64,000 nt of DNA from Bdellovibrionales bacterium CG10_big_fil_rev_8_21_14_0_10_45_34. GTDB lineage: Bacteria > Bdellovibrionota > Bdellovibrionia > Bdellovibrionales > 1-14-0-10-45-34. The position numbers and the translations under genes are program-made. The notes beneath the pieces were generated by a model that saw only the letters and a list, made by a program, of their open reading frames with translations, was not told where the DNA came from and ran no database searches. Below are positions 1 to 12,761 of this stretch, piece after piece (positions within the stretch are counted from its first letter, which is position 1; every line of letters starts with the position of its first letter). The stretch covers positions 62,001 to 126,000 of the forward strand of contig PEZS01000011.1 in the NCBI GenBank assembly GCA_002778785.1, in the 5' to 3' direction.

Positions 1-3000
1 GATGATGGCAGACTACCTCATCGTTACAGTGGTGTTTATATAGCCCAGCAAGGCGCCAAGATCGCCCCACCTCAAATTGGTGAACTGCTGTTAAAAAATG
101 GCAGTGTTTCACCCGATACTACGAGATCTGAGTTAGACATTTCTCTGTCGTCGACGGCGACCTACTTAGTGCCGGATATCAGAAAGAAACGAGATCAAAG
201 AAATCGCATAGAAAACCCGACAGGACTTAGTAGCAGCATCTTCGCTATTGACCCTGGCTGGGATTCTGGAGACAACGGGTTTAACTTAGTGGCTTTGCTT
301 TCAATATCAAATAACGCAAGCGTGCCCCAGAGATTTCAGCCTTTTCGAGTTGATGCAAGTTTCACCAAGCTTCTAAACGTCTCCCAAGTGCTGATTCCCA
401 AAAGCGATTCAACGGCGACTTTATACATTATCTATTCGGTTGATACTTCCGAGGCTGGCAGCGAGGGCGCCTCAGGCAGGACTCTCTGCAAAATCATCGA
501 CATCGAGTACTCACATGGTGCCATTAACTCAAATGGTTCAAGAGATGTAATTATTTCGAAAGAGCAAGCCTATCTCGGCACCGATTTAAATGATCGACTC
601 CATTTGGATCGTTCGGGAAGCTTACTTATCCAGACTGATGGCGCTGAAAAACGCGAGGGTCGAAAAGACATCGTTAGCTTTATGAATCTCTCCGTTGGTA
701 CACGATTGGAAGTACGAACGAGAGAATTTTCAACTAGCGGCCTTCAATTACTGAGCACTCAGACCGCAGAAGGGGCCGAAGGTTCCGTAGGGTCGCTTAT
801 ATCGACCTCAAACAACATGATGCAGGAGTCTTGGAAAGTATACGGCCTCATGCAGTTTGCTAAGAGACTTGCAGCCATGGGAATCGATGTCGATTCCACT
901 TTTAAAAACGTTAAAGGCAGCAATCAGGGCAATGAAAGCAAAGACGGAAATGCGAAGAAGAATAGGACGCAAGTCAAATTTGACCAGCTCCGTGAAACGG
1001 CAAGACGAAAAGTAGCCAACGGTAAAATCCTCATTAAACTAGGGAACGACGGTCGATCCAAATTTTTCTCTGATTTTTTCGAGCACATTGTACGGTTAAA
1101 CTCCCAACGCGGAGAACATGAGTATAGGGACAAGTGGTTAAGGGCATCAGATCTCGGCATTTACTTTTCTGGAAAGGACCTAGATCCACAAGATATCCGC
1201 TTGAATCAAGGAAGAATTCTCACTGATTCTAGCGAACCTACAGCATTGTTTGTCGATTTACGGGGATTACTCGATTGGGTGGAAGGAAGAATTGAGCAAC
1301 AAAGCGAAGATTTCGCGGCAGACCCTGTGAACTCTTCAGACCTGGATTCGATGGCCTCGTCATATAGCGACTCTGCCGCGGGAGTTCAGATGGGCGAAGA
1401 TGGGCCCTCAGGTGATGAAACTGCTGACTTAAGAGTCAAACTAATTGAGGGAGCGCTAAATCAACTCGTCGGTTCAGACTCAAAATTAACTAACCATGCA
1501 AATACAATTCTTGTGGGAACTTTCGAAGACATTGAGTACATCAATAGCGCGCTCGGTAAAACGGGCAATTCGCTTGATTCTTTTGGCCTCGAGGTAAACT
1601 CGAGTTTTGCCAACAATGTATTTTCAGCTGGCGATCCACAGTCTGGTGAAGTTCCTAGCGCAGTAAAAGATGCGATGGAGCACCCAAGTACTATTACAGA
1701 GGAAAAGATCATTGACTCCGTCTTTGAAGAGCTCAGAAGCGCGGCGACCCCAAATGCGGAAACTGCAGTGAATACGGTGTTCTTAATTCCTGATGAACTG
1801 CTCAGCTACGTTAATCGCATTGTGACAAGTGTATGGGCAGACACACGACCGGCCCGCGCCAGCGAACTTTGGAGTTGTCAAAATTCGCGATTAAAGTTGT
1901 TCCTCGCCTCCTCCGGTCTCGTTTCTGTTTTGGAAGCTTCCAAACAGCCTGCCAATACCTTGGCCTTCGACCATTTAAAACAAATGGACCCCGCTCAGGG
2001 AACTGCGAGTGTATTTGTAGGAGACCTCGATACTATCCGTAAGATGGGACGGCACATCTCTCAGTCTGCAAAAGGGCCACTACATATTTCTGATCCTCTT
2101 GACCCAGAGCGATTGGCAACACCTCACTTTCTTTACCTACTAGCAAATGACGGCTCTGTTCCTGGTGAAATACCTCAAGACAGAACAGGTAAACGGTCGA
2201 AGAATCGCGGTAAGTCTATAATACTTTTGGGAACTGAATCGCAGTGGGAAAAACTACAAGGAGATTTAACCCTTGAGAACAATCTTGGCCTTGCCAAGAT
2301 GTTCACCATTAAACGAATCGAACGCCCGACCGTCGAAGCAAGGGTATCTAGAATTGAAGATATTTTAAACGAATTCAAACTCGGAGAACTTGGATATAGA
2401 TTCGATATCTCGACAAGGTCGACTTCGCAAAAGAATATTATCGTTAACTCGACTTCATCTAGCAAAGAATTTGCAGAGTATCTGGTCAATCGGGCAGATA
2501 ATATATCAACCGAAAACAAAACCGAAGTCACAAGTAATTATGTCCGAATGGAAACGAACTTGCGCGACTTGATTAAGAATGATTCAGAGATTCGAAGAAC
2601 AAAAGTACTTGATCGTACATTTGCTGAACGAGTTCTTGCCAAGGCGTTTGGCCTAGCTCTCCATTATGAAATTCTGCCAGAAGATGATCCCATTCGAATT
2701 TTGCAAAGAGATGACGGAACTTTTGCTGCCATGGAACTGCAAAGAAGAGGGTACAATGGGCCAATTGAACTAAAGCTTAAGTTTATCAAGGCGCTCGCAA
2801 ACCAATCACAAAATACTTCTGTGCTGCCGATTCCTAGTTCGCAAATTATTTACGGTCGCGGAGGCACCGGAAAAACTCTTCTGTGGACGACTACCGTCCT
2901 AGGTGTTCTGAACAGAAAGTTATACGATTTCGCAAATGGCGCAGAGAACGAAGATGCGTCAGCGATGATGATTGATGTTAGCAAAGTTGCAACTGTGAGC

Positions 3001-4794
3001 AATTCTCGAGATGTCTATAGCGAGGACCTCGTTGACGACAACTTCGAGGACATTGAGGAACACTTACTTCGATTTTTAAGCGGCCCAAATGGATACCGTG
3101 GTTATGTATTGCTAGATGATTTGCATAAGGCCCCTTCCGATGTTCTTAAGAGGTTTATTACTCTTATCAATTCTCTGTTCTCAGCTCCCAATGGCATATT
3201 TACTCGTCGGCTCAGAAATGGAGAAGTTGTAAGCTTTCCAATTCGAAACTTGAGCTTAACTATAACTTTGAATCCCCCCTCAGACATTAGCAAGATTAAG
3301 AAGTTCGGAGGATCCGGAACTAAAGTAGACGTGGGAAGCATTTTAGCGTCCTTGAACACCGACGAAAATTCTGTTGAAACATCCTTTGTCACACGCTTTG
3401 GCACCATCATTCCCCTTGACGTATTTCCCGTAGAAGCTAAAGGGCCGCAGCTGCAGAAAGCAGTATCCGAACTGTCGAAGCAGTATTTTGATAGCGCAGG
3501 AAGACTCACTCTTCTTGGTCCTCAAGTTGCCCAACGAATTGCTGACTCCTTTAAAGAGACTAACGTGCGCGAGTTCGTGCCGGAGGCCTCAAGAAGTATT
3601 ATGCAACTTTCACGACGTGGCTCTAATCAGTCCAATCTTGTTTCGATTGTCATTCCTAAAAGTCGCCTTCGAAAGGCTTCGACTTCATCGGGTTACGAAT
3701 TTGGAGGGTTAAACTCCACGTCAACCAAGAATGATCCCTTTGAGGTTGAAGGCCGTGATAGTACGAGGATTGCAACAATTATTGAAGATAACTTTACATC
3801 AGTCCCTATAGATCATGGTTTTGATGGACGTCTCTATTTAACTGAGATGTTGGTCGACTCATTCAGAACCACACTCTATCAAACACTCATAGAAGGAATT
3901 CAAGAGAGCCAAGCATTTTTAAATATTCAAAACAGGGGTGAGGACGCCGGCGGCATCTTAGTTTATGCCATAAATACGAATCTAAAAGCGAGACCGTTTC
4001 TACCGCTAAGTTTGTTGCAACTGTTCCCCGAACACTATGGGATCAGAAATGTGGTCGACGCAAATACGTTTAGGCAGGGAATTCAACTTATTTCACGAGC
4101 CGAGGAAAATTATTTCCCCGTTAATTTTGGTGTGCAGTCCTCGCTGGCAGAGCTATTGGGCTCAGAAAGCCTTAGGAACTATCGAAGAAGTGACGTTTTA
4201 TCTACCTTCTCTACAGTGCTCTTAGACCCAGTAAGGCAGTTTCTTGAGAAAATATCCTACTTCAAAACTCAAGATGGAAATTTGACTCCTAGTCAATGGA
4301 TCGATTTGCTCCCTGAGTCGGGAAAACCAGAGTCGGCGAAGCAAACTAAGAGAGCAATGCTTGTTATCGCCCACCAAATTCTCGACGCTTTTTTTAAATT
4401 TGCCCATGAGATCAACGATCGAAATGTGCATGAGTCGAGAAGTCGAGGAAATACCAGAAGTCCCGATTTATACGATATTTCGCGCCTATTCATGATCGTG
4501 ATTGATAAATCTATCAGCGCTCTCCCGTGGAGTTCGCTACAGAGAACCGTAAGCGAAACACTTATAGAAAGCACCAAGTCTCTACAACTTGCACAGGATC
4601 GCAGATTTCAAAACTATTTCTTTCAAACAGAGAATACGTTAGTTAGGCCCGGCGACCCTATGACTTTAGAATACGTGTCGGCTAGCTATCCTCCTTACAA
4701 GAATCTGGAGAAAAACGATGGTTTGAGGGAAAAGAACTCCAATTTCGAGTCTTCCTGCCGATTGTTTTTTTCCGAAAACATGGGTGAGAAATGA
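1..4794 (+). CDS. Giant Clp/AAA+-like ATPase, 5' end outside window
   Basis: Frame 1 is open from the first base, so the visible 1597 residues are only the C-terminal part. A GTG at 169 exists but nothing marks it as the start. The first ~700 visible residues are mostly beta-rich and unrecognised. Around residues 740-790 there is a sensor-1-like stretch (ILLGTES, then a conserved ErPtVE pattern) that resembles the end of a Clp/ClpB D1 module. A clear Walker A GRGGTGKT lies at 952-959, a Walker B-like VLLDDLHK at about 1036-1043, and a sensor-1-like TITLNPP at about 1087, reminiscent of MoxR/dynein-type AAA+ proteins. The long remainder is unknown. The stop overlaps the next start (ATGA), so the two genes are translationally coupled. 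Function is unknown; I infer an ATP-driven remodelling machine working with the VWA protein that follows. Confidence 0.8.
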   Translation, partial: DDGRLPHRYSGVYIAQQGAKIAPPQIGELLLKNGSVSPDTTRSELDISLSSTATYLVPDIRKKRDQRNRIENPTGLSSSIFAIDPGWDSGDNGFNLVALLSISNNASVPQRFQPFRVDASFTKLLNVSQVLIPKSDSTATLYIIYSVDTSEAGSEGASGRTLCKIIDIEYSHGAINSNGSRDVIISKEQAYLGTDLNDRLHLDRSGSLLIQTDGAEKREGRKDIVSFMNLSVGTRLEVRTREFSTSGLQLLSTQTAEGAEGSVGSLISTSNNMMQESWKVYGLMQFAKRLAAMGIDVDSTFKNVKGSNQGNESKDGNAKKNRTQVKFDQLRETARRKVANGKILIKLGNDGRSKFFSDFFEHIVRLNSQRGEHEYRDKWLRASDLGIYFSGKDLDPQDIRLNQGRILTDSSEPTALFVDLRGLLDWVEGRIEQQSEDFAADPVNSSDLDSMASSYSDSAAGVQMGEDGPSGDETADLRVKLIEGALNQLVGSDSKLTNHANTILVGTFEDIEYINSALGKTGNSLDSFGLEVNSSFANNVFSAGDPQSGEVPSAVKDAMEHPSTITEEKIIDSVFEELRSAATPNAETAVNTVFLIPDELLSYVNRIVTSVWADTRPARASELWSCQNSRLKLFLASSGLVSVLEASKQPANTLAFDHLKQMDPAQGTASVFVGDLDTIRKMGRHISQSAKGPLHISDPLDPERLATPHFLYLLANDGSVPGEIPQDRTGKRSKNRGKSIILLGTESQWEKLQGDLTLENNLGLAKMFTIKRIERPTVEARVSRIEDILNEFKLGELGYRFDISTRSTSQKNIIVNSTSSSKEFAEYLVNRADNISTENKTEVTSNYVRMETNLRDLIKNDSEIRRTKVLDRTFAERVLAKAFGLALHYEILPEDDPIRILQRDDGTFAAMELQRRGYNGPIELKLKFIKALANQSQNTSVLPIPSSQIIYGRGGTGKTLLWTTTVLGVLNRKLYDFANGAENEDASAMMIDVSKVATVSNSRDVYSEDLVDDNFEDIEEHLLRFLSGPNGYRGYVLLDDLHKAPSDVLKRFITLINSLFSAPNGIFTRRLRNGEVVSFPIRNLSLTITLNPPSDISKIKKFGGSGTKVDVGSILASLNTDENSVETSFVTRFGTIIPLDVFPVEAKGPQLQKAVSELSKQYFDSAGRLTLLGPQVAQRIADSFKETNVREFVPEASRSIMQLSRRGSNQSNLVSIVIPKSRLRKASTSSGYEFGGLNSTSTKNDPFEVEGRDSTRIATIIEDNFTSVPIDHGFDGRLYLTEMLVDSFRTTLYQTLIEGIQESQAFLNIQNRGEDAGGILVYAINTNLKARPFLPLSLLQLFPEHYGIRNVVDANTFRQGIQLISRAEENYFPVNFGVQSSLAELLGSESLRNYRRSDVLSTFSTVLLDPVRQFLEKISYFKTQDGNLTPSQWIDLLPESGKPESAKQTKRAMLVIAHQILDAFFKFAHEINDRNVHESRSRGNTRSPDLYDISRLFMIVIDKSISALPWSSLQRTVSETLIESTKSLQLAQDRRFQNYFFQTENTLVRPGDPMTLEYVSASYPPYKNLEKNDGLREKNSNFESSCRLFFSENMGEK

Positions 4795-7700
4795 AACGAG
4801 ATACTTACGTAAACAAAAGTTTTTTCGGCATCGCAAAGTGGTACTCAGTTTTGTTTGTTTTTTGTTCAGCAGTTGGCTACGGCCAAGGCCAAAAAGATAA
4901 CTCTTCTCATCAGAAAAGCGGGGCGTGTGATAACCTCCTTGTGGCTGGCCAGGCTGGTAAAGTTGAAATTGTAGGAAGTGGACGCAATGACGACGTAATG
5001 CCATTTTTAGAGCAAGAGGTTCAGGACATAATGGGACCTGGCGGCATTGCAGATCGGCTAGGAATACCACTTCCTCACGGGCAGGTTAACTTCGCTCCGT
5101 CTGACGTTTTGACCTCGATGGCGGCTGTAGGGCGCCATCCGATAGGACACTCTCATGATGGTTACGGAATTGTTTCGGGGTCAGCCGGCGCCGGCGGCGT
5201 ACTAGAGTTTGTAACTCCCGCCTGCACCACCTGCCGTTCCTACTATCAGGACTCCACCAATCCAATGGAGCAAGTTGCGATTCTTCATCATGTTGTTGGG
5301 CATAATCACTTCGCTGCAAGAAACCCGAGGGCTAGACAGCGAAATTCTGATCCAATGGAAGCCGCTCTCAGGTTACACAACGCAGTTGCCGCTGCGAGAG
5401 CTGAGGTTGGAGACGACGAACCAGAAGTGTTTTATCGCTTTCTGCAGTCGACCTATTCTCTGCAACCTTTTAATGGAGCACTTTTCCGATCGCCAGAGTA
5501 TTTTGCAAACTCCAAGTTTCACCAGCCGGGTCACTCTCTGGTCGAGTTTGGGGGCGCGCTAGATCAAAACTCCCTCCAAGCACTCGTGGCGGCCATTCCT
5601 GCGTCAGCCCCAGAATGGAAGAAGAAGATTGCAAAGGAATTTGAAGAGGTTTACCGAAGTTATGGCTACTACTCGCCGTTCAAAATCATGAACGAGGGTT
5701 GGGCTACAATTTTAATGGAAATATTGCCTACACATTCAAAGTGGGCCAACAATGATGAATACCAGTTTAGGCTTGCTCATCTCATGACCGGCGTCGCCTA
5801 TCCGGGCTTGTCGAACCCCTACTGGCTTGGGCGAGAAGCGTGGCGAAGACTTCGAGCACGATTTAATGAAAAACCTGAAATTAAAAATCTTAGCCCTTTT
5901 GAAAGGGACAAGAAGTTTATCAGCTACGCTGACGAGTTGATTAGAACAACGGCTAATGATTACGATTTCCTGCGACTAGCCCTTGATGAAAGTTTTGTAC
6001 TTGAACATGGGCTGTACATCCAGAGAAAACTTGAAATGGATGAAGTAGACTGGAGCCTGCCAGGTGATGACAACCTCCCTTGGCCGTACGCTCAATATGA
6101 AGTTGACAGTACCAACCCCCAAGAAGTTATTCGTTTCATCGCCGATTTGGTCGCCGACAAGGAAAAGTCCGCCCCTCCTGTCGGTATCGTTAGTTTTAAG
6201 GGAGCAGGAGATAGCTCACTCCAGTTTCGCTCAGCTTCTTTTAAAAAGGTGCCTATTAATAGATCGGAACTCGGGCAAGCACTCTATGTATTTAGCCAGA
6301 TTATCGAGCGACCTATATCATTTGACGGTTGGTTTATTTTAAAAGGAGTTGATTCGGCTTCGCAGGATAAATCTCTGCCATCTCCGCCATGGTACAGACC
6401 TACTGCTGCTAAGATGGAAATGCTTCCACTTCGTGTTAAGGTCTCACCAGAAGGAAAAGTAGATATTAGAGTTCTAAGATATGGTGCGGAAGATTCCGCT
6501 CAACCCATGTCTATAGACTGGAGCACTGTAGAGATCGATAATGGCGAGTTGGCGTCTTGGATTCAAAGTGAAATTGAGAAACTTAAGGGATCTTTAGAAG
6601 GTCGGATTCAGTATTTTCACGATCATACCGGCCTTACCGTAAGTCGCGCGGGACGTGAATCCTTTAGTAACAGATTTCGAGAGCTTGTTACCACTATCAC
6701 GAACGGACAGCTTAATGAATTTCGTAGTCAGGTAATCCATCAGACTCCTCACCTACCAGAAGCTTTGCTCCGCTATGCAGACATGCTCAGAAGAATCTTG
6801 CCAGAAAGAATGCGTGCTTTCGCTCAGGGCAAGCTTCGTTCTAAAATTGGGCGAAATGGCACGAAGATTTCCGTCTTCCCGCCTATTCCTCACATTGATT
6901 GGGACTGGAAGGGTTTAGAGGCTTTTGAAAAGTGGCAAAAAGAACAAGCTGACGACAAACGCCATGGCTACTACTTAGTTCAAAATAATGCAGGACTTGC
7001 GAATACGCTCGCGTCGATCGCAAAAGAAGGCGTTTACGAAGTCAATGGACCGTTCGACCATTTGCGTTTTCAAGAACTGGCAGATGATAGGCAAGGAAAT
7101 GACGATCCAAATCAACAGATGAAGACCTCGAGTCTTGCACCAGTTCCTAGCGCTGACTCCTCTTTGTTTGTACCTTCAAATGTTTTAGCTAAAGAATACG
7201 CCAAAAGAGTTTGGGCGCCTACGCAGAAAGGTACTTCCGTTTCGAATTCACAAACGGGGCTATCGTGGGATTCAAAAAGTAAAAAAGCCTTTACTGATGT
7301 ACCTAAGGAGTTGCTTTTAGCTGCTGGGGACCGAAAAATCGGTTCAGACCCTAGAAAGAAGCGGAAGGGCGATCGATACTGGGGCCCAGATGACTCCCAA
7401 GAAAAAGGGGATGGCGACGGCGAAGAAGATGGTGAAGGAGACAGTGAAGAAAGTGACGACGGCGAAGGAAAAGAACCCAATCCTGGAGTACCTGGTGAGG
7501 ACGGTTTTATAGAGATTCCTGATGATGCGTTCGCCACAATCTTAACTGAGCTTTTTGAACTTCCAAACACGCGGCCAAAAGCAGCTGGCGATAAAAAGCG
7601 AGAAGATGTGAGAGCTGGCGAAATGCACCAGGTTAGCGGTGAAGTCCTTTGGGATTCTATGGCTGACCGAATTATCTCCTTAGGTAAAGCTTCCTTACAA

Positions 7701-8351
7701 AGACAGGGCGCTGTAAAGCCCACGGCGAGAGAATGCTATGAGGAAGGCGTGAAATTTCTTACTGACACAGATTTTATTGTGCGAGGTAGAGAGGTAAGGC
7801 CTTCCCCTGAAATTCAAGCCGTCTTAGTTTTTGTTATTGATATGAGCGGAAGCATGAGCGGGGAACCCTACCGGATTTTGAGAAAAGTCCTCAGAAATAT
7901 GCGACTCCTCTTGAAAAAGAAATATAAAAAGATCGATATTCGAATTGTAGGTTTTAGTGGCGAAGCAAAAGAATTCAAAGAGGAAAACTGGCACAAATTT
8001 TTTATCGGTGGCAGCACTGATTACGTGCAAGGCCTATCACTTGCTGAAAAAATACTTTCAACGTACTCAGCAAGTTCGTACGACAAGTATGTGGTCATCG
8101 GCGGGGACGGGCAGGATGTAAATCCTCAGGGAACAATTAACTTCACTAAAAAATGGGCACCAATGCTTCAATACCTTTCATTCATACTTACAGATGTTTA
8201 CGGTATTGGAGTTGATGGACTGCCAATTGCTTCCTTCTACGCTCAGCAATCCAAGTCTGATCCTTACTTTGGATTTTCTTATGTTTCGGATGCCCTTGGC
8301 TCCGAGGCCAAGGTCATGAATGATCTGTTTGGCAAGAATAAGAAAAAGTAA
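4791..8351 (+). CDS. SpoVR-like domain fused to DUF444-type VWA domain, with N-terminal signal
   Basis: 1186 residues. Residues ~10-31 form a basic-then-hydrophobic signal or anchor. Residues ~150-420 carry SpoVR-family hallmarks: an HHVVGHNHF motif near 166, NEGWAT near 301, and an NPYWLG segment followed by a DYDFLRLAL-like motif. A highly acidic Gly/Asp/Glu linker follows at ~870-905. The C-terminus (~1005-1186) is a VWA domain with the MIDAS motif DMSGS at 1017, a downstream GGSTD Thr and a GGDGQD segment; the EAKEF...GGSTD region resembles DUF444 (YhbH/YeaH). SpoVR and DUF444 proteins are normally separate cytoplasmic partners of the kinase PrkA, so a single exported fusion is unusual. 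The start overlaps the stop of the AAA+ gene. I infer a metal-binding adaptor of the neighbouring AAA+ ATPase. Domain calls are by motif only. Confidence 0.8.
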   Translation: MKRDTYVNKSFFGIAKWYSVLFVFCSAVGYGQGQKDNSSHQKSGACDNLLVAGQAGKVEIVGSGRNDDVMPFLEQEVQDIMGPGGIADRLGIPLPHGQVNFAPSDVLTSMAAVGRHPIGHSHDGYGIVSGSAGAGGVLEFVTPACTTCRSYYQDSTNPMEQVAILHHVVGHNHFAARNPRARQRNSDPMEAALRLHNAVAAARAEVGDDEPEVFYRFLQSTYSLQPFNGALFRSPEYFANSKFHQPGHSLVEFGGALDQNSLQALVAAIPASAPEWKKKIAKEFEEVYRSYGYYSPFKIMNEGWATILMEILPTHSKWANNDEYQFRLAHLMTGVAYPGLSNPYWLGREAWRRLRARFNEKPEIKNLSPFERDKKFISYADELIRTTANDYDFLRLALDESFVLEHGLYIQRKLEMDEVDWSLPGDDNLPWPYAQYEVDSTNPQEVIRFIADLVADKEKSAPPVGIVSFKGAGDSSLQFRSASFKKVPINRSELGQALYVFSQIIERPISFDGWFILKGVDSASQDKSLPSPPWYRPTAAKMEMLPLRVKVSPEGKVDIRVLRYGAEDSAQPMSIDWSTVEIDNGELASWIQSEIEKLKGSLEGRIQYFHDHTGLTVSRAGRESFSNRFRELVTTITNGQLNEFRSQVIHQTPHLPEALLRYADMLRRILPERMRAFAQGKLRSKIGRNGTKISVFPPIPHIDWDWKGLEAFEKWQKEQADDKRHGYYLVQNNAGLANTLASIAKEGVYEVNGPFDHLRFQELADDRQGNDDPNQQMKTSSLAPVPSADSSLFVPSNVLAKEYAKRVWAPTQKGTSVSNSQTGLSWDSKSKKAFTDVPKELLLAAGDRKIGSDPRKKRKGDRYWGPDDSQEKGDGDGEEDGEGDSEESDDGEGKEPNPGVPGEDGFIEIPDDAFATILTELFELPNTRPKAAGDKKREDVRAGEMHQVSGEVLWDSMADRIISLGKASLQRQGAVKPTARECYEEGVKFLTDTDFIVRGREVRPSPEIQAVLVFVIDMSGSMSGEPYRILRKVLRNMRLLLKKKYKKIDIRIVGFSGEAKEFKEENWHKFFIGGSTDYVQGLSLAEKILSTYSASSYDKYVVIGGDGQDVNPQGTINFTKKWAPMLQYLSFILTDVYGIGVDGLPIASFYAQQSKSDPYFGFSYVSDALGSEAKVMNDLFGKNKKK

Positions 8352-8663
8352 AAGCAAAAGTATTTATATAGAGGTAAATGTTGGTTCCGCTCGTCGCAGG
8401 TGGATCCGTACTTGCCTCCTTTTGGACACACGCGGGCTTTGGAAGCAATTCGCTTGAGGAGTTGAGCCTTTCCAATAAGAAATTCTAATGGAAAATAGAG
8501 GGTTTTGATTGGCACTTATAGATATTTTTCACAACCTTTTTCATTCAATTGCCATTTACTCGCAGTGTGAAAGGATTCAGCCCAAAGTATTCCTCTTTCA
8601 AAAAAAGCGTTTAATGCAATGTCTGAGGGTTAGGACAAATTCAGTCGTAAAGAAGGAGCATTC
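8352..8663. other. 312-bp gap within the AAA/VWA cluster
   Basis: No credible gene. A short inverted repeat TTTCCA...TGGAAA lies near 8467-8492, and an AAGGAG ribosome site sits at the right edge, seven bases before the next start. I see no convincing sigma-70 or sigma-54 promoter, so whether the third gene is co-transcribed cannot be decided by eye. Confidence 0.4.
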
Positions 8664-9992
8664 ATGACAATCAATTTGAAAACGTTTTTCCAAAGCTACT
8701 TAGGTCATTCTTCATCAACTACTGGAATGGTTTTATTTCAGGTAGCTGGGGTGCTCGTACTTTTACTTAATGTACTTTTCTGTTCGATTACAGCATTTGC
8801 GAGTAACCGGTCGGAGTTAGATTACTGTGAAAACCTCGTTCAGGCCCCCAGTAAAGTAGACCCAACTCCTGCTATTCTCCAGCCTACAACTACAAGGCTT
8901 GAAATCCCGGAGGACTCTGAAAACTTAAGAAGGCAAAGCCAAATTGCGAAGTCCAAGTTAGTTGGAAGAGACGCCTTACTGCAAGATTTGCTTAAGACCA
9001 TCGAAGCAAAAGCGGCGTTTTCGAGTAAAACCGACGCCCCTATTCTATCAATTATGGCAGTTGGTCCTACCGGAACCGGAAAGAGCCAGCTAGCAAAGGC
9101 GCTTGCGGCAGCTCTACATGGGGATGAAGGCAAAGTCCTTAGAATAAACATGGGTGAAGCAATCGGCGACTACAGCCTGGGGGGGGCGCCGCCGGGACTT
9201 GCTGGAGCGGACACTCCACCGATGCTTAGCAACAGTCAACTGAGTTCTGTAACTAGTGAAAAGAGTGAAGTATCAATTGTTTTAGTCGACGAAATCGAAA
9301 AATCCAAAGCATCTCATTTGGGTGCGAAAGATTTGTTAGATATATTTTTATCGGTGCTTGAGGGGCACTTCACTACCGGTAAAAACCAAACCGTGGATCT
9401 CGGTAAGACCGTATTTATTTTTGCGTCAAACACCGGCACTGCGCAAATTGCCAAGCGAAAAACCTCGATTGGTTTTGTTAAAGATATCGAAGAAGTCAGC
9501 GTAGTATCAGAAGCATCAAGTATTCGAGGTGACGCAAATGGGAGTAGTTTTTTGGCTCTTTATAAAAGTTCTGTTGAAGCATCTTTTAAACCAGAGTTTT
9601 TGAATAGAATTGACCACCTAGTTTTATTCCCCCCACTAACAAGTCAAGAACTTGCTAAAATAGCTGAAATCACTTTTGAATCCTCAAAGAACAACTTTCT
9701 GGATAATCTTCCGCCAACAATTTTTTCTGTCGATTATGAAGTGTATGAATGGATTTCTGAACAAGCAATAGAGCCGGAGAAATACAACGGAAGAGCCGTG
9801 AAGCGAGCAACTGATGTGCACTTGATTAGTCCGTTGCGTCAGATTTTGTTACCGTTTGCGATTAAAAATTCAAATCGCTTACCTATTGGCGACAACTACA
9901 TTGAAATACACGTGAAATTGAGTCATCAGAGAAACGGCATTGAGTTTTTTAGAAATGTATACGGGCCTGCAGTCCACCCTAACCGCAAGTAA
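8664..9992 (+). CDS. Signal-bearing ClpB D2-like AAA+ ATPase
   Basis: 442 residues. The ATPase core looks intact and matches the second AAA+ module of ClpB/HSP100: Walker A GPTGTGKS at 134-141, Walker B VLVDEIEK at 206-213, sensor-1 Asn in FIFASNTG at ~258, an arginine finger in FLNRID at ~315 and a sensor-2 Arg in GRAVKR at ~376. The ClpB N-domain, first AAA+ module and coiled coil are absent. The first ~47 residues contain a long hydrophobic segment ending AFAS, which reads as a signal peptide or single membrane anchor. ATP is not normally available in the periplasm, so the protein is either anchored with its C-terminus in the cytoplasm or exported in an unusual way. The start has an AAGGAG site. 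The neighbourhood suggests it works with the two genes before it. Confidence 0.82.
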   Translation: MTINLKTFFQSYLGHSSSTTGMVLFQVAGVLVLLLNVLFCSITAFASNRSELDYCENLVQAPSKVDPTPAILQPTTTRLEIPEDSENLRRQSQIAKSKLVGRDALLQDLLKTIEAKAAFSSKTDAPILSIMAVGPTGTGKSQLAKALAAALHGDEGKVLRINMGEAIGDYSLGGAPPGLAGADTPPMLSNSQLSSVTSEKSEVSIVLVDEIEKSKASHLGAKDLLDIFLSVLEGHFTTGKNQTVDLGKTVFIFASNTGTAQIAKRKTSIGFVKDIEEVSVVSEASSIRGDANGSSFLALYKSSVEASFKPEFLNRIDHLVLFPPLTSQELAKIAEITFESSKNNFLDNLPPTIFSVDYEVYEWISEQAIEPEKYNGRAVKRATDVHLISPLRQILLPFAIKNSNRLPIGDNYIEIHVKLSHQRNGIEFFRNVYGPAVHPNRK

Positions 9993-10028
9993 GACATGTA
10001 GCAAATTGGCGAAGTCTATTAAAATTCT

Positions 10029-10223
10029 CTAGCGGTACTTGCAGATGCCAAGCAATTTCTCGACGTCGTTGCAAAAGTAGACTTGGCATCTTGGATCGCT
10101 GACTTGGCCATTCCATTCGAAGTAGGCTCTTTTGTTTCCTAAGTTTGGATCGTCTACGTATTTCATTTGTGCTTTGGTACAAGTTCCAAAATACGTACAC
10201 GAAATCACTGACCCCGGAGGCAA
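10029..10223 (-). pseudogene. Cys-rich open frame after the Cys-repeat gene, possible remnant
   Basis: A 64-codon frame directly downstream of the large Cys-repeat gene, in a different frame and just after an in-frame TAG. It could only start at a TTG and has no ribosome site. The peptide has five Cys and several Trp/Tyr/Phe, a composition like the end of the neighbouring protein, so it may be a decayed duplicate of that C-terminus. It may equally be chance. Confidence 0.25.
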
Positions 10224-10267
10224 GCTGCGAGACTAGGTCTTGCAGCTTCAGAATAAAGGGGACAGGC

Positions 10268-12625
10268 TCAGTTGCACGTTCTTTTGTAAACACAGTTGAC
10301 GCGCCACTTGTGATTGTTCGGGTACCTGCAAAACCATGGACCACTTCCAAGGTCTTTCCACCAAGTCCCGTCCCATCCAAAGCGGTTTGAGTTTCCGCCT
10401 TGGAAGCATGTGCCAGGAGCTTGATTGAAGTTTGGAGCCGAATCAGAAGGCGAATGCTGAACCCTGTTCTCAAAGCAAGTCAGCGGCGTTCCCATCGGAA
10501 GTGGACTGTTCTTTAAGTACGAGAACATTCCAGAAGTCCAAGAGCTCTTTGTGCAATCATCATTCAGATCACCATATGTAGCGTGATAAAACTCCGCTCG
10601 TGCGAAGCTCCAGGACGACGAAGTATCAAGTGGAGGAAGACAATTTAACGTCTCCCCTGGACTCACCTCAACACGTCGACAAGAGTTGCTTCCGCTTCCT
10701 CCCGTTACGCATTCCTGCCCAATAACGATGCCGGAACACGAGTGGTTTGCAGGCTCTGCATCGCAAGACCCAATTGTTGATATTTGGTTTCCTGGTATTT
10801 GAAAACCCGTAGGTGTCGAAGTGCCATTGTCACAGCGGTACTGAACCAAGTTCTGATAGATTCCGTAGAGGACCCCGCCGTAAGGACAACTCAAAGGCTG
10901 CTTTCTAGTGCCCTCAACTTCGTACCACGTTGTTAAATGCTTACGACTTCCACAATCTTTAGGAGGTGGTGGATTGCACGCTCCTTCGTACCCAATGAAA
11001 CTGCCTTGGCTGGTTCCACTCGTTGCGCTCTGCCCATTGTTACAACTGTATTGAGTCAGAGACTCGTAAAGTTTAAATTTATTGCCACCATGCGCGCAGA
11101 CTTCAGGTACTTTAATTGGCGCGCCTTCAATTTGCGTCCAACTGGAACCATGTGAATTATTGCCGCAAGTTTTTGGGGCGCACGACCCTTCAGTACCTTG
11201 TGACTCTCCTTTTCGCGGATCGACTTGTGGCTTTGGTCGGATGGTTCCATCAAAGCACTGATAAAGAATCTCTCGCGCGTAGATATCAAAGTAGCTGGCG
11301 CTAGAATCATATTCGCAAACTTTTGGTTCTTTTGTTGTTCCTTCAACGATGTACCACTCATCAAGATGCTTTCTGGCATCACCGCAATCTCTTGCCGGCG
11401 GTGGACACTCCCCTGTTCGCGACACCAGATCTCCCGGGCGAGAGTTCCCAGTAAGACTGCTTGAACCATCGTCACACCTATATTCCACCTGTTTCTTAAA
11501 TAGTTCAGTGATTGTGCTTTCGCTGTTTGTACAATTGATGACATCTTCGGTTCTCTCTTCCGAATCTTGCCACCACGTACTGCCATGCGGATGATTGCCG
11601 CAAGAAGCCGGCGGCGGCGGATTGCACGCCCCTGTTTCACCAATTTTATTGCCCTTCAAAACTTCTGTCGTCATCTGAGTGTTGAAGCAAGTATCTTTAA
11701 TAATTCTCTCAAACAAAAAGACCAAATTACCACCGTGCTGACAGCTTTGCGGCACTTCTAAAACTCCGTCCGCTTTGCTTCGTGAAGTATCGTGCTCCAT
11801 ATCTGCACAGTTCGTCGTTGGAGCCGAGTTGCAGGACCCCGTCGTAACTCCTGGCTCAACGAGCTCAGGCTCTCCGATTTGAGAAATTGTGCCATTGTCA
11901 CAAGTCTTCTGGACGCTTGTTTGATGGGTGGTTACAAGACTCCCGCCGTAAAGACATTCGCCAACAGCGATAGCCGGATCACCTGACTCCTGCCAAATTT
12001 CTCCATGAGCTCGATCACCGCAACCCACCGGAGGCGGAGTTCCGCAGGAGCCCTCCTGACGTATGGGGCCCACCCTTTGAGTATTACCTGTGGGTTCAAT
12101 GATTCCTTGATCGCAGCGGTACTCAGTTTTGTCGGTATAAACATTCATCAAGTTGCCCGGATACAAACAAATCGCAGGCTCTTTGACCTCGGCATCAACT
12201 GTCCACACCGAGCCATTACTCTGACTGCCACAATTGGTCGTGGGCTCCGTGTTGCATGCGCCTTGCCTACCAATTTCTTCTTCGCGAGCAGGCGTTTGTG
12301 TTCGGCCAGTCGTACCGGAGTTACACGCGTACTCCAACCATATACGATAATGTATTTGAAGGTTTCCACCATTGGTTCCGCAATCGCCCGCCCGCCACTC
12401 CTCCCGGGTCGCCTCTTCAAAGACGTCTCCGTGTGCAATATCGCCGCAAGGCAGGTTCGGAGGGCCGACTATTCCGCCCGGCTCAATGCCATCGCCAAAA
12501 TTTTTTTGAGGCGCTGTATTCTCCAGAACACGAAACTCCGCCGGGGCGCAGTTTTTATAGGTGACGCTAATGCCCGTAAGCAAGGAAATGACTAAAAACC
12601 ATCGAGTGAATCCAGAACCCAACAT
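10268..12625 (-). CDS. Exported Cys-rich protein with eight tandem repeats
   Basis: 785 residues from the ATG at 12625, chosen because GGAGG lies five bases upstream and a hydrophobic signal begins there; the frame extends further upstream without support. The signal ends in TYKNCAP, which could be a non-canonical lipobox. After a short linker there are eight repeats of about 55-80 residues. Each opens with CG followed by His/Gly (for example CGDIAHG, CGNNSHG, CGSRKHL), has an internal Cys before GG, then a CDNG-like Cys, and closes with G-S/A-C, often followed by a Pro-rich joint. Four Cys per repeat suggest two disulphides each, fitting an extracellular location. A different Cys-containing C-terminal domain of ~130 residues follows. 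Function is unknown; an adhesin or surface scaffold is plausible. One diverged copy of the repeat appears in the lipoprotein at 53 kb. Confidence 0.85.
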   Translation of the reverse strand: MLGSGFTRWFLVISLLTGISVTYKNCAPAEFRVLENTAPQKNFGDGIEPGGIVGPPNLPCGDIAHGDVFEEATREEWRAGDCGTNGGNLQIHYRIWLEYACNSGTTGRTQTPAREEEIGRQGACNTEPTTNCGSQSNGSVWTVDAEVKEPAICLYPGNLMNVYTDKTEYRCDQGIIEPTGNTQRVGPIRQEGSCGTPPPVGCGDRAHGEIWQESGDPAIAVGECLYGGSLVTTHQTSVQKTCDNGTISQIGEPELVEPGVTTGSCNSAPTTNCADMEHDTSRSKADGVLEVPQSCQHGGNLVFLFERIIKDTCFNTQMTTEVLKGNKIGETGACNPPPPASCGNHPHGSTWWQDSEERTEDVINCTNSESTITELFKKQVEYRCDDGSSSLTGNSRPGDLVSRTGECPPPARDCGDARKHLDEWYIVEGTTKEPKVCEYDSSASYFDIYAREILYQCFDGTIRPKPQVDPRKGESQGTEGSCAPKTCGNNSHGSSWTQIEGAPIKVPEVCAHGGNKFKLYESLTQYSCNNGQSATSGTSQGSFIGYEGACNPPPPKDCGSRKHLTTWYEVEGTRKQPLSCPYGGVLYGIYQNLVQYRCDNGTSTPTGFQIPGNQISTIGSCDAEPANHSCSGIVIGQECVTGGSGSNSCRRVEVSPGETLNCLPPLDTSSSWSFARAEFYHATYGDLNDDCTKSSWTSGMFSYLKNSPLPMGTPLTCFENRVQHSPSDSAPNFNQAPGTCFQGGNSNRFGWDGTWWKDLGSGPWFCRYPNNHKWRVNCVYKRTCN
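10763..12448 (-). repeat. Coding tandem array of eight four-Cys repeats
   Basis: Eight diverged protein-level repeats inside the Cys-rich gene. Unit starts are marked by PCGD, NCGS, GCGD, NCAD, SCGN, DCGD, TCGN and DCGS, each with a His-Gly or similar pair a few residues on. DNA identity is low, so the array is old rather than recently expanded. Confidence 0.8.
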
Positions 12626-12761
12626 GGAAGCCTCCACATCAATGTATCGGAATAGGAATGCCCCATCTTGAGATAAAACTGGCAGCACCGATTCGGGGTT
12701 ACAACTCAAGCGCCAAGGTTGCGGGTTTCTCACTTTGAGACGGTGCATTCTGACTTCACAG

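What the first reader, a model, noticed from the sequence alone, without database searches (positions are those of the whole stretch)
1..9992. Candidate new AAA+/SpoVR-VWA/ClpB-like system with export signals
Three consecutive same-strand genes carry a giant Clp-like AAA+ protein, a SpoVR-like domain fused to a DUF444-type VWA with an intact MIDAS motif, and a complete ClpB D2-like ATPase. The known module keeps PrkA, DUF444 and SpoVR as separate cytoplasmic proteins; MoxR-VWA pairs are also separate. Here the SpoVR-VWA fusion and the ClpB-like protein start with signal or anchor segments. The first two genes overlap by ATGA. I infer a membrane-bound or envelope ATP-driven remodelling complex.
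Basis: partly seen in the sequence, partly recalled or inferred. Interest (0 to 1): 0.88.

Follow-up and report, generated by a model that had tools for sequence, protein, structure and literature searches.

The report
Exported PrkA–SpoVR–VWA ATPase operon
Many relatives of Bdellovibrio carry three neighbouring genes for what looks like an exported version of an energy-driven protein machine that other bacteria keep inside the cell, which raises the question of where it gets its ATP.

Summary
The SpoVR–DUF444(VWA) fusion is real, and its MIDAS and SpoVR H..GH/E motifs are almost invariant in relatives. Gene 1 is cut by the window start; in full it is 2112 aa, with a signal-peptide-like N-terminus and a Clp-type AAA+ core. 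The missing partner lies just upstream, outside the window: a PrkA-like AAA+ protein, also with a signal-peptide-like N-terminus. PrkA-like, giant and fusion form a tight operon in Bdellovibrionota: 27 of 369 genomes searched, 14 families. Nearly every N-terminally complete member of all three families has a hydrophobic, signal-peptide-like start; none of 227 canonical homologues passes the same test. The genome also keeps a canonical PrkA and a normal DUF444–SpoVR pair, so this is an additional, exported variant of that module. The ClpB-like third gene is identified correctly but was not found beside the operon elsewhere. Best reading: an extracytoplasmic AAA+/MIDAS remodelling machine with SpoVR as its probable metal-site effector; client and ATP source are unknown. 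In passing: exported ClpB–M41 protease fusions, and a terminal CxxL[L/F] motif enriched on exported proteins.

The parts
1..4794 (+). Giant AAA+ protein, residues 516-2112 of 2112 (start lies upstream at G000:C11:60456); Clp-D2-type AAA+ core, unassigned N-terminal ~1000 residues
   Evidence: ORF; hhalign to ClpB D2 97%, E 1e-11; family in 27 of 369 phylum genomes
2854..2877 (+). Walker A of the giant (residues 1467-1474, GRGGTGKT)
   Evidence: Kept in nearly all relatives: K1473 30 of 33 covered rows, the rest gaps
3106..3120 (+). Walker B of the giant (around D1554 D1555)
   Evidence: 29 of 29 covered rows
4791..4794 (+). ATGA overlap of giant stop and fusion start
   Evidence: Sequence; -4 bp spacing also most common in relatives
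4791..8351 (+). SpoVR-DUF444(VWA) fusion, 1186 aa
   Evidence: Pfam; gene-order conservation
4791..4886 (+). Signal-peptide-like N-terminus of the fusion (residues 1-32)
   Evidence: Hydropathy rule; canonical homologues 0 of 227
5262..6050 (+). SpoVR core (residues 158-420) with H167, H171, E302
   Evidence: Pfam; invariant in 29 of 29 exported and 25 of 25 canonical rows; confident in model
7743..8192 (+). DUF444-type VWA with MIDAS (D1017, S1019, S1021, T1076, D1106)
   Evidence: Pfam; conservation; Foldseek VWA matches incl. Rea1-MIDAS
8396..8415 (+). Weak terminator-like hairpin after the fusion
   Evidence: Consensus scan only; fewer found than in shuffles
8664..9992 (+). Exported-looking single ClpB-D2-type AAA+ protein; neighbour, probably not part of the conserved unit
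   Evidence: not found beside the operon elsewhere

Best explanation
This is an exported, derived version of the cytoplasmic PrkA-DUF444-SpoVR module: a three-gene operon in the order PrkA-like AAA+ ATPase, 2112-aa Clp-type AAA+ giant, SpoVR-VWA fusion. All three proteins leave the cytoplasm through N-terminal signal peptides and probably form one complex in the periplasm. Inferred mechanism, by analogy with AAA+/MIDAS pairs such as MoxR-VWA and Rea1: the AAA+ rings bind ATP and pull on or remodel a client; the Mg2+-bound MIDAS of the VWA domain grips an acidic residue of client or ring; SpoVR, held on the same chain, acts on the remodelled client through its conserved H..GH/E site, which looks like a metal site. 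Shown: domain content, kept catalytic motifs, operon conservation, signal-peptide-like starts, correlated divergence, one branch for the fused clade. Inferred: physical complex, periplasmic location, ATP use, SpoVR catalysis, client.
For: DUF444 and SpoVR in 13 of 13 fusions. AAA_PrkA in 8 of 9 and PrkA C-terminal domain in 7 of 9 PrkA-like members; hhalign to canonical PrkA 99.5%, E 4e-22, 591 columns; family profile hits solved serine protein kinase 9xip at E 8e-27. Conserved order and tight spacing. Signal-peptide-like starts in nearly all complete members, 0 of 227 canonical. Walker, sensor, Arg-finger, MIDAS and SpoVR residues kept. Distances correlate 0.72-0.82. Fused VWA is one side of a branch, 99/97. 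Canonical PrkA and DUF444-SpoVR are also present in the genome.
Against: No experiment; export rests on a hydropathy rule, not SignalP. The periplasm is not known to hold ATP. The giant is absent between the other two in L040 and L042, so it may be dispensable. The window's own PrkA-like member scores below Pfam cut-offs. The giant model failed and its N-terminal half is unassigned. Correlated distances do not separate a functional unit from shared species history.
Confidence: 0.62

Rival explanations
1. The proteins are exported but act outside the producing cell, for example delivered into prey or released where prey or host ATP is available, so the ATPases are fuelled by the victim.
For: Carriers are Bdellovibrionota, a phylum with predators; Bdellovibrio 109J is reported to use host nucleoside monophosphates during intraperiplasmic growth (cited in PMC7529429), so nucleotides reach the predator's envelope. 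Other exported AAA+ proteins occur in the phylum.
Against: The genus with ~3.8 Mb single-contig genomes (g4, possibly Bdellovibrio) lacks the system. No secretion partner was found; carriers named so far are MAGs of unknown lifestyle.
Confidence: 0.15
2. The proteins are exported but the AAA+ cores no longer use ATP; they are structural scaffolds or nucleotide sensors.
For: ATP is not expected in the periplasm; the 422-aa ClpB-like neighbour has an odd Walker A (GPKGSGKD).
Against: Walker A Lys, Walker B acids, sensor Asn and a conserved Arg are kept in essentially all PrkA-like and giant members.
Confidence: 0.1
3. The N-terminal segments are not signals and the system is a cytoplasmic or inner-face membrane-tethered paralogue of the PrkA module.
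For: No SignalP or experiment; orientation not measured.
Against: Positive N-region, hydrophobic core and AxA-like end recur in three unrelated families across 14 GTDB families; canonical homologues 0 of 227. The proteins are Cys-poor, median 2-3 per protein.
Confidence: 0.06
4. One reading: giant, fusion and the ClpB-like protein.
For: Same strand, adjacent, all exported-looking; a second ClpB-like paralogue (L003:7934-9202) flanks the operon on the other side.
Against: No ClpB-like gene of this type was found beside the operon in the other loci. A 312-bp gap with a weak terminator-like hairpin separates it. In G116 a different exported protein (ClpB-like AAA plus M41) lies downstream.
Confidence: 0.05

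Closest known systems
PrkA(YeaG)-DUF444(YeaH/YhbH)-SpoVR(YcgB) module
   Same: All three protein families are present in one operon; MIDAS and SpoVR H..GH/E residues are shared.
   Different: Signal-peptide-like starts; SpoVR and DUF444 fused in reversed order; a Clp-type AAA+ giant inserted; ~25% identity; separate clade.
MoxR-vWA ternary systems, including the beta-propeller type (Kaur et al. 2020, PMC7159879)
   Same: AAA+ plus MIDAS VWA plus a large third protein.
   Different: bpMoxR scores are below cut-off (17.3 vs 27 bits); no Pfam propeller in the giant; the searched terms SpoVR, PrkA, DUF444 and signal peptide do not occur in that paper.
Midasin/Rea1
   Same: The VWA model matches Rea1-MIDAS (E 5.4e-05); same logic of AAA+ ring plus MIDAS.
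   Different: Here AAA+ and MIDAS are on separate chains, apparently outside the cytoplasm, with SpoVR attached. Analogy only.
ClpB/Hsp104 D2 and torsins (ER-lumen AAA+)
   Same: Giant core and gene at 8664-9992 are ClpB-D2-type; torsins are a known non-cytosolic AAA+ precedent (own knowledge). An exported ClpB-like relative also hits Pfam Torsin.
   Different: The giant is otherwise unlike ClpB; the 442-aa protein lacks the ClpB N-domain, D1 and middle domain; torsins live where ATP is supplied.

Membership tests
PrkA-DUF444-SpoVR module | PrkA-family AAA+ protein with PrkA C-terminal domain | tested here: met
   8 of 9 and 7 of 9 relatives, hhalign 99.5%; the window genome's own member is below Pfam cut-off
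PrkA-DUF444-SpoVR module | DUF444 and SpoVR proteins encoded next to it | tested here: met
   Both domains in the same operon
PrkA-DUF444-SpoVR module | DUF444 and SpoVR as separate proteins | tested here: not met
   Single fused ORF, SpoVR first; canonical loci have separate ORFs
PrkA-DUF444-SpoVR module | No export signal (cytoplasmic) | tested here: not met
   Signal-peptide-like starts here, 0 of 227 canonical
MoxR-vWA beta-propeller ternary system | bpMoxR ATPase above family cut-off | tested here: not met
   17.3 bits vs 27
MoxR-vWA beta-propeller ternary system | beta-propeller in the third component | tested here: inconclusive
   No Pfam hit in the giant; no repeat signal in its N-terminal half; no usable model
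ClpB (for 8664-9992) | D2 AAA+ module | tested here: met
   NCBIfam ClpB E 1.6e-38, profile 553-843
ClpB (for 8664-9992) | N-domain, D1 and middle domain; full-length score over cut-off | tested here: not met
   442 aa, 132.6 vs 1232 bits cut-off
Extracytoplasmic ATPase | Located and active outside the cytoplasm | not testable with these tools
   Needs topology reporters, fractionation and ATPase assays

The most novel reading that the evidence does not exclude
Bdellovibrionota run a set of ATP-driven AAA+ machines outside the cytoplasm (this PrkA-like/giant/SpoVR-VWA operon, ClpB-like proteins and ClpB-M41 protease fusions), powered by ATP that reaches the periplasm, possibly from prey, and perhaps sharing a terminal CxxL[L/F] docking motif.
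Probability: 0.35. Interest if true: 0.93.

Novelty: new variant of a known kind. Interest (0 to 1): 0.82.

Why it matters
The textbook view is that the bacterial periplasm holds no ATP, so envelope proteostasis is ATP-independent. A conserved operon with two exported-looking AAA+ ATPases whose Walker, sensor and Arg residues are kept makes that view directly testable in one phylum. It also gives a fused, exported version of the PrkA–DUF444–SpoVR module, whose cytoplasmic form is widespread and stress-induced but has no settled biochemical function. The papers I read give a yeaG/yeaH lag phenotype after nitrogen starvation (PMC4664914) and disagree on kinase activity (PMC4664914, PMC13001217).

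Tried and rejected
Trio of giant, fusion and ClpB-like gene: rejected as the unit, since the ClpB-like gene is not found beside the operon elsewhere. Degenerate ClpB D1 in the giant's residues 1040-1400, suspected by eye: no profile support (hhalign 0.3%). Giant as a PrkA derivative: no good support (5.8% to canonical PrkA, 50% over 38 columns to the PrkA-like family). AlphaFold of the giant's C-terminal 1113 residues: pLDDT 44, discarded. E~1e-4 giant hits across the phylum: short matches around the P-loop, mostly in ~430-aa frames, taken as ClpX-type noise. TLC ATP/ADP carrier as ATP source: no hit, and uninformative because all controls were silent too. Defence system: no PADLOC hit for the three core proteins. 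Rfam in 1-12000: nothing. Genome sampling outside the phylum: not possible, the centre must be a G handle. Searches of the held literature found no exported PrkA/SpoVR system; that library lacks most subscription journals.

Full report
WHAT IS IN THE WINDOW. The three ORFs are as described, with one caveat: the first is cut by the window edge. The window is G000:C11:62001-126000. Reading upstream (L003) shows the whole locus on one strand: ileS-, lspA- and lgt-like housekeeping genes (named by eye); a 422-aa AAA+ protein (clp1, L003:7934-9202); a 920-aa ORF (L003:9590-12352; the natural start is probably an internal ATG); the giant (L003:12456-18794, 2112 aa); then the fusion (window 4791-8351) and the 442-aa ClpB-like protein (clp2, window 8664-9992). 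Giant and fusion overlap by ATGA.

IDENTITIES. The fusion has DUF444 (E 1.5e-18) and SpoVR (E 2.3e-12) above Pfam cut-offs. Both domains are found in 13 of 13 family members scanned, best 1.8e-31 and 6.5e-23. The upstream 920-aa protein is PrkA-like. Its own Pfam scores are below cut-off, but 8 of 9 family members hit AAA_PrkA and 7 of 9 the PrkA C-terminal domain. The family profile matches a solved 'serine protein kinase' (9xip, E 8e-27), and profile-profile comparison to canonical PrkA gives 99.5%, E 4e-22 over 591 columns. The giant has no Pfam hit alone and only generic AAA hits in relatives; hhalign places its core on ClpB D2 (97%, E 1e-11). So 'Clp-like AAA+' is right for the core, while the first ~1000 residues remain unassigned. 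clp2 is a single ClpB-D2-type module; clp1 is a weaker relative of it.

CONSERVATION OF THE UNIT. I searched the fusion against 141 genomes of the order and the giant against 369 genomes of the phylum. The giant is found at E 7e-74 or better in 27 genomes of 14 GTDB families (counted from the table). Neighbourhoods show the order prkA-like, giant, fusion almost everywhere the contig allows. The prkA-giant gap is -4 to 97 bp, and the giant-fusion gap is most often -4 bp. Exceptions: the giant is absent between the other two in L040 and L042, prkA-like is divergent in L186, and L180 has fusion before giant. Pairwise distances among 15 genomes with all three correlate at 0.82, 0.72 and 0.78; none of 60 (fusion-prkA) or 40 (fusion-giant) permutations reached the observed value. 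That test does not separate co-inheritance of a unit from shared species history. The fused VWA domains form one side of a branch (99/97, all 200 bootstrap trees) apart from canonical DUF444, including those of Bdellovibrionota; some branches are long. No ClpB-like gene of the clp1/clp2 type was found next to the operon elsewhere.

EXPORT. A hydropathy rule (12-residue core, positive charge before it) was applied to N-terminally complete members and to canonical homologues. Strict passes were 21 of 28 fusions, 12 of 19 PrkA-like and 17 of 21 giants. Most failures miss only on charge or by a few tenths in hydropathy; two fusion entries are frame-broken fragments without the true start. None of 154 canonical DUF444/SpoVR nor 73 canonical PrkA proteins passed. 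Most starts end in AxA-like sites. This is inference from sequence; SignalP was not available.

ACTIVE SITES. In the rows that cover each position, MIDAS D1017, S1021 and D1106 are unchanged in 27, T1076 in 25 of 27, and S1019 is Ser or Thr. SpoVR H167, G170, H171, E302 and G303 are unchanged in 29 rows, and also in 25 of 25 canonical SpoVR proteins. PrkA-like K248 (20 rows), E453, N493 and R512 (21 rows), and giant K1473, D1554, D1555 and R1647, show no substitution (a few gaps). Such retention argues for working ATPases, a working MIDAS and a working SpoVR site. That the SpoVR site binds metal is my inference from the H..GH and E pattern; the listed structural matches do not cover that half.

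STRUCTURE. The fusion model (54-row alignment, mean pLDDT 62.9) is confident in the SpoVR core and in the VWA domain. The listed Foldseek matches are VWA domains, first CMG2 and Rea1-MIDAS, also a 19S proteasome chain. The giant model failed.

RELATION TO THE KNOWN MODULE. In the canonical loci fetched, PrkA, DUF444 and SpoVR are separate genes, mostly in that order. This genome keeps a separate DUF444–SpoVR pair (C6) and a canonical PrkA (C16). The exported system is therefore additional. It differs in export, in the SpoVR–DUF444 fusion in reversed order, and in the giant. In E. coli, yeaG and yeaH mutants show the same altered lag after nitrogen starvation (PMC4664914), while B. anthracis PrkA is described as an AAA+ ATPase without detectable kinase activity (PMC13001217). 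The MoxR–vWA ternary-systems paper does not contain the terms PrkA, SpoVR, DUF444 or signal peptide (PMC7159879).

MECHANISM. See the best explanation. The open problem is energy. Bdellovibrio 109J was reported to use host nucleoside monophosphates during intraperiplasmic growth (cited in PMC7529429), so nucleotides can reach a predator's envelope. ATP in the periplasm of the carriers here is undemonstrated, and their lifestyles are unknown.

WIDER PATTERN. A ClpB search and its follow-up turned up many other signal-bearing ClpB-like proteins of about 650-1460 aa in the phylum. Three of those scanned carry an FtsH-type M41 protease domain, one in this genome (L222) and one directly downstream of the operon in G116 (L225). 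A short C..[LFIM][LFIM] motif occurs within 35 residues after the signal in 16 of 147, and in the last 25 residues of 15 of 147, signal-bearing ORFs, but in only 2 of 7300 random internal windows of 35 residues. The sample is enriched for these families, so the rates are not genome-wide. A looser form of the motif is in 17 of 27 fusions and 13 of 19 PrkA-like proteins near the N-terminus, and in 23 of 33 giants at the C-terminus.

VERDICT. A real, conserved and, as far as I could find, undescribed exported variant of the PrkA–DUF444–SpoVR module. Identity and conservation are firm; export is likely; mechanism and energy source are hypotheses.

Noticed in passing
L222:4154-8455 (own genome C6), L231:2774-6220, L225:2097-5984: Signal-peptide-bearing ClpB-like AAA+ proteins fused to a C-terminal FtsH-type Peptidase_M41 domain (M41 E 3.6e-19, 1.6e-11, 1.9e-21). 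In G116 one lies directly downstream of the SpoVR-DUF444 fusion.
   Followed up: partly
L223, L224, L226-L230, L232-L240: Many further ClpB-like AAA+ proteins of about 650-1460 aa with signal-peptide-like starts across Bdellovibrionota.
   Followed up: partly
window 4791-8351 (residue C46), L003:12456-18794 (C2101), L222:4154-8455 C-terminus and L222:8459-11629 N-terminus: A short CxxL[L/F]-type motif just after the signal or at the extreme C-terminus of exported proteins; two neighbouring genes in L222 share NRCADLLSG at C- and N-terminus. Enriched at termini against internal windows.
   Followed up: partly
L222:8459-11629: Exported-looking protein with a C-terminal FGE-sulfatase (formylglycine-generating-enzyme-like) domain beside an exported ClpB-M41 fusion.
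   Followed up: no
L003:7934-9202: Exported-looking single ClpB-D2-type protein with an odd Walker A (GPKGSGKD), a paralogue of window 8664-9992, upstream of the operon.
   Followed up: partly
window 10268-12748 (- strand): 826-aa ORF made of about nine Cys-rich repeats of roughly 65 residues (seen by eye in the translation).
   Followed up: no
L179:1-5590, L177, L180: Second system copies and a tandem duplicate of the fusion in family f15; in L177 and L180 the giant is followed by further exported-looking ORFs of similar sizes.
   Followed up: no
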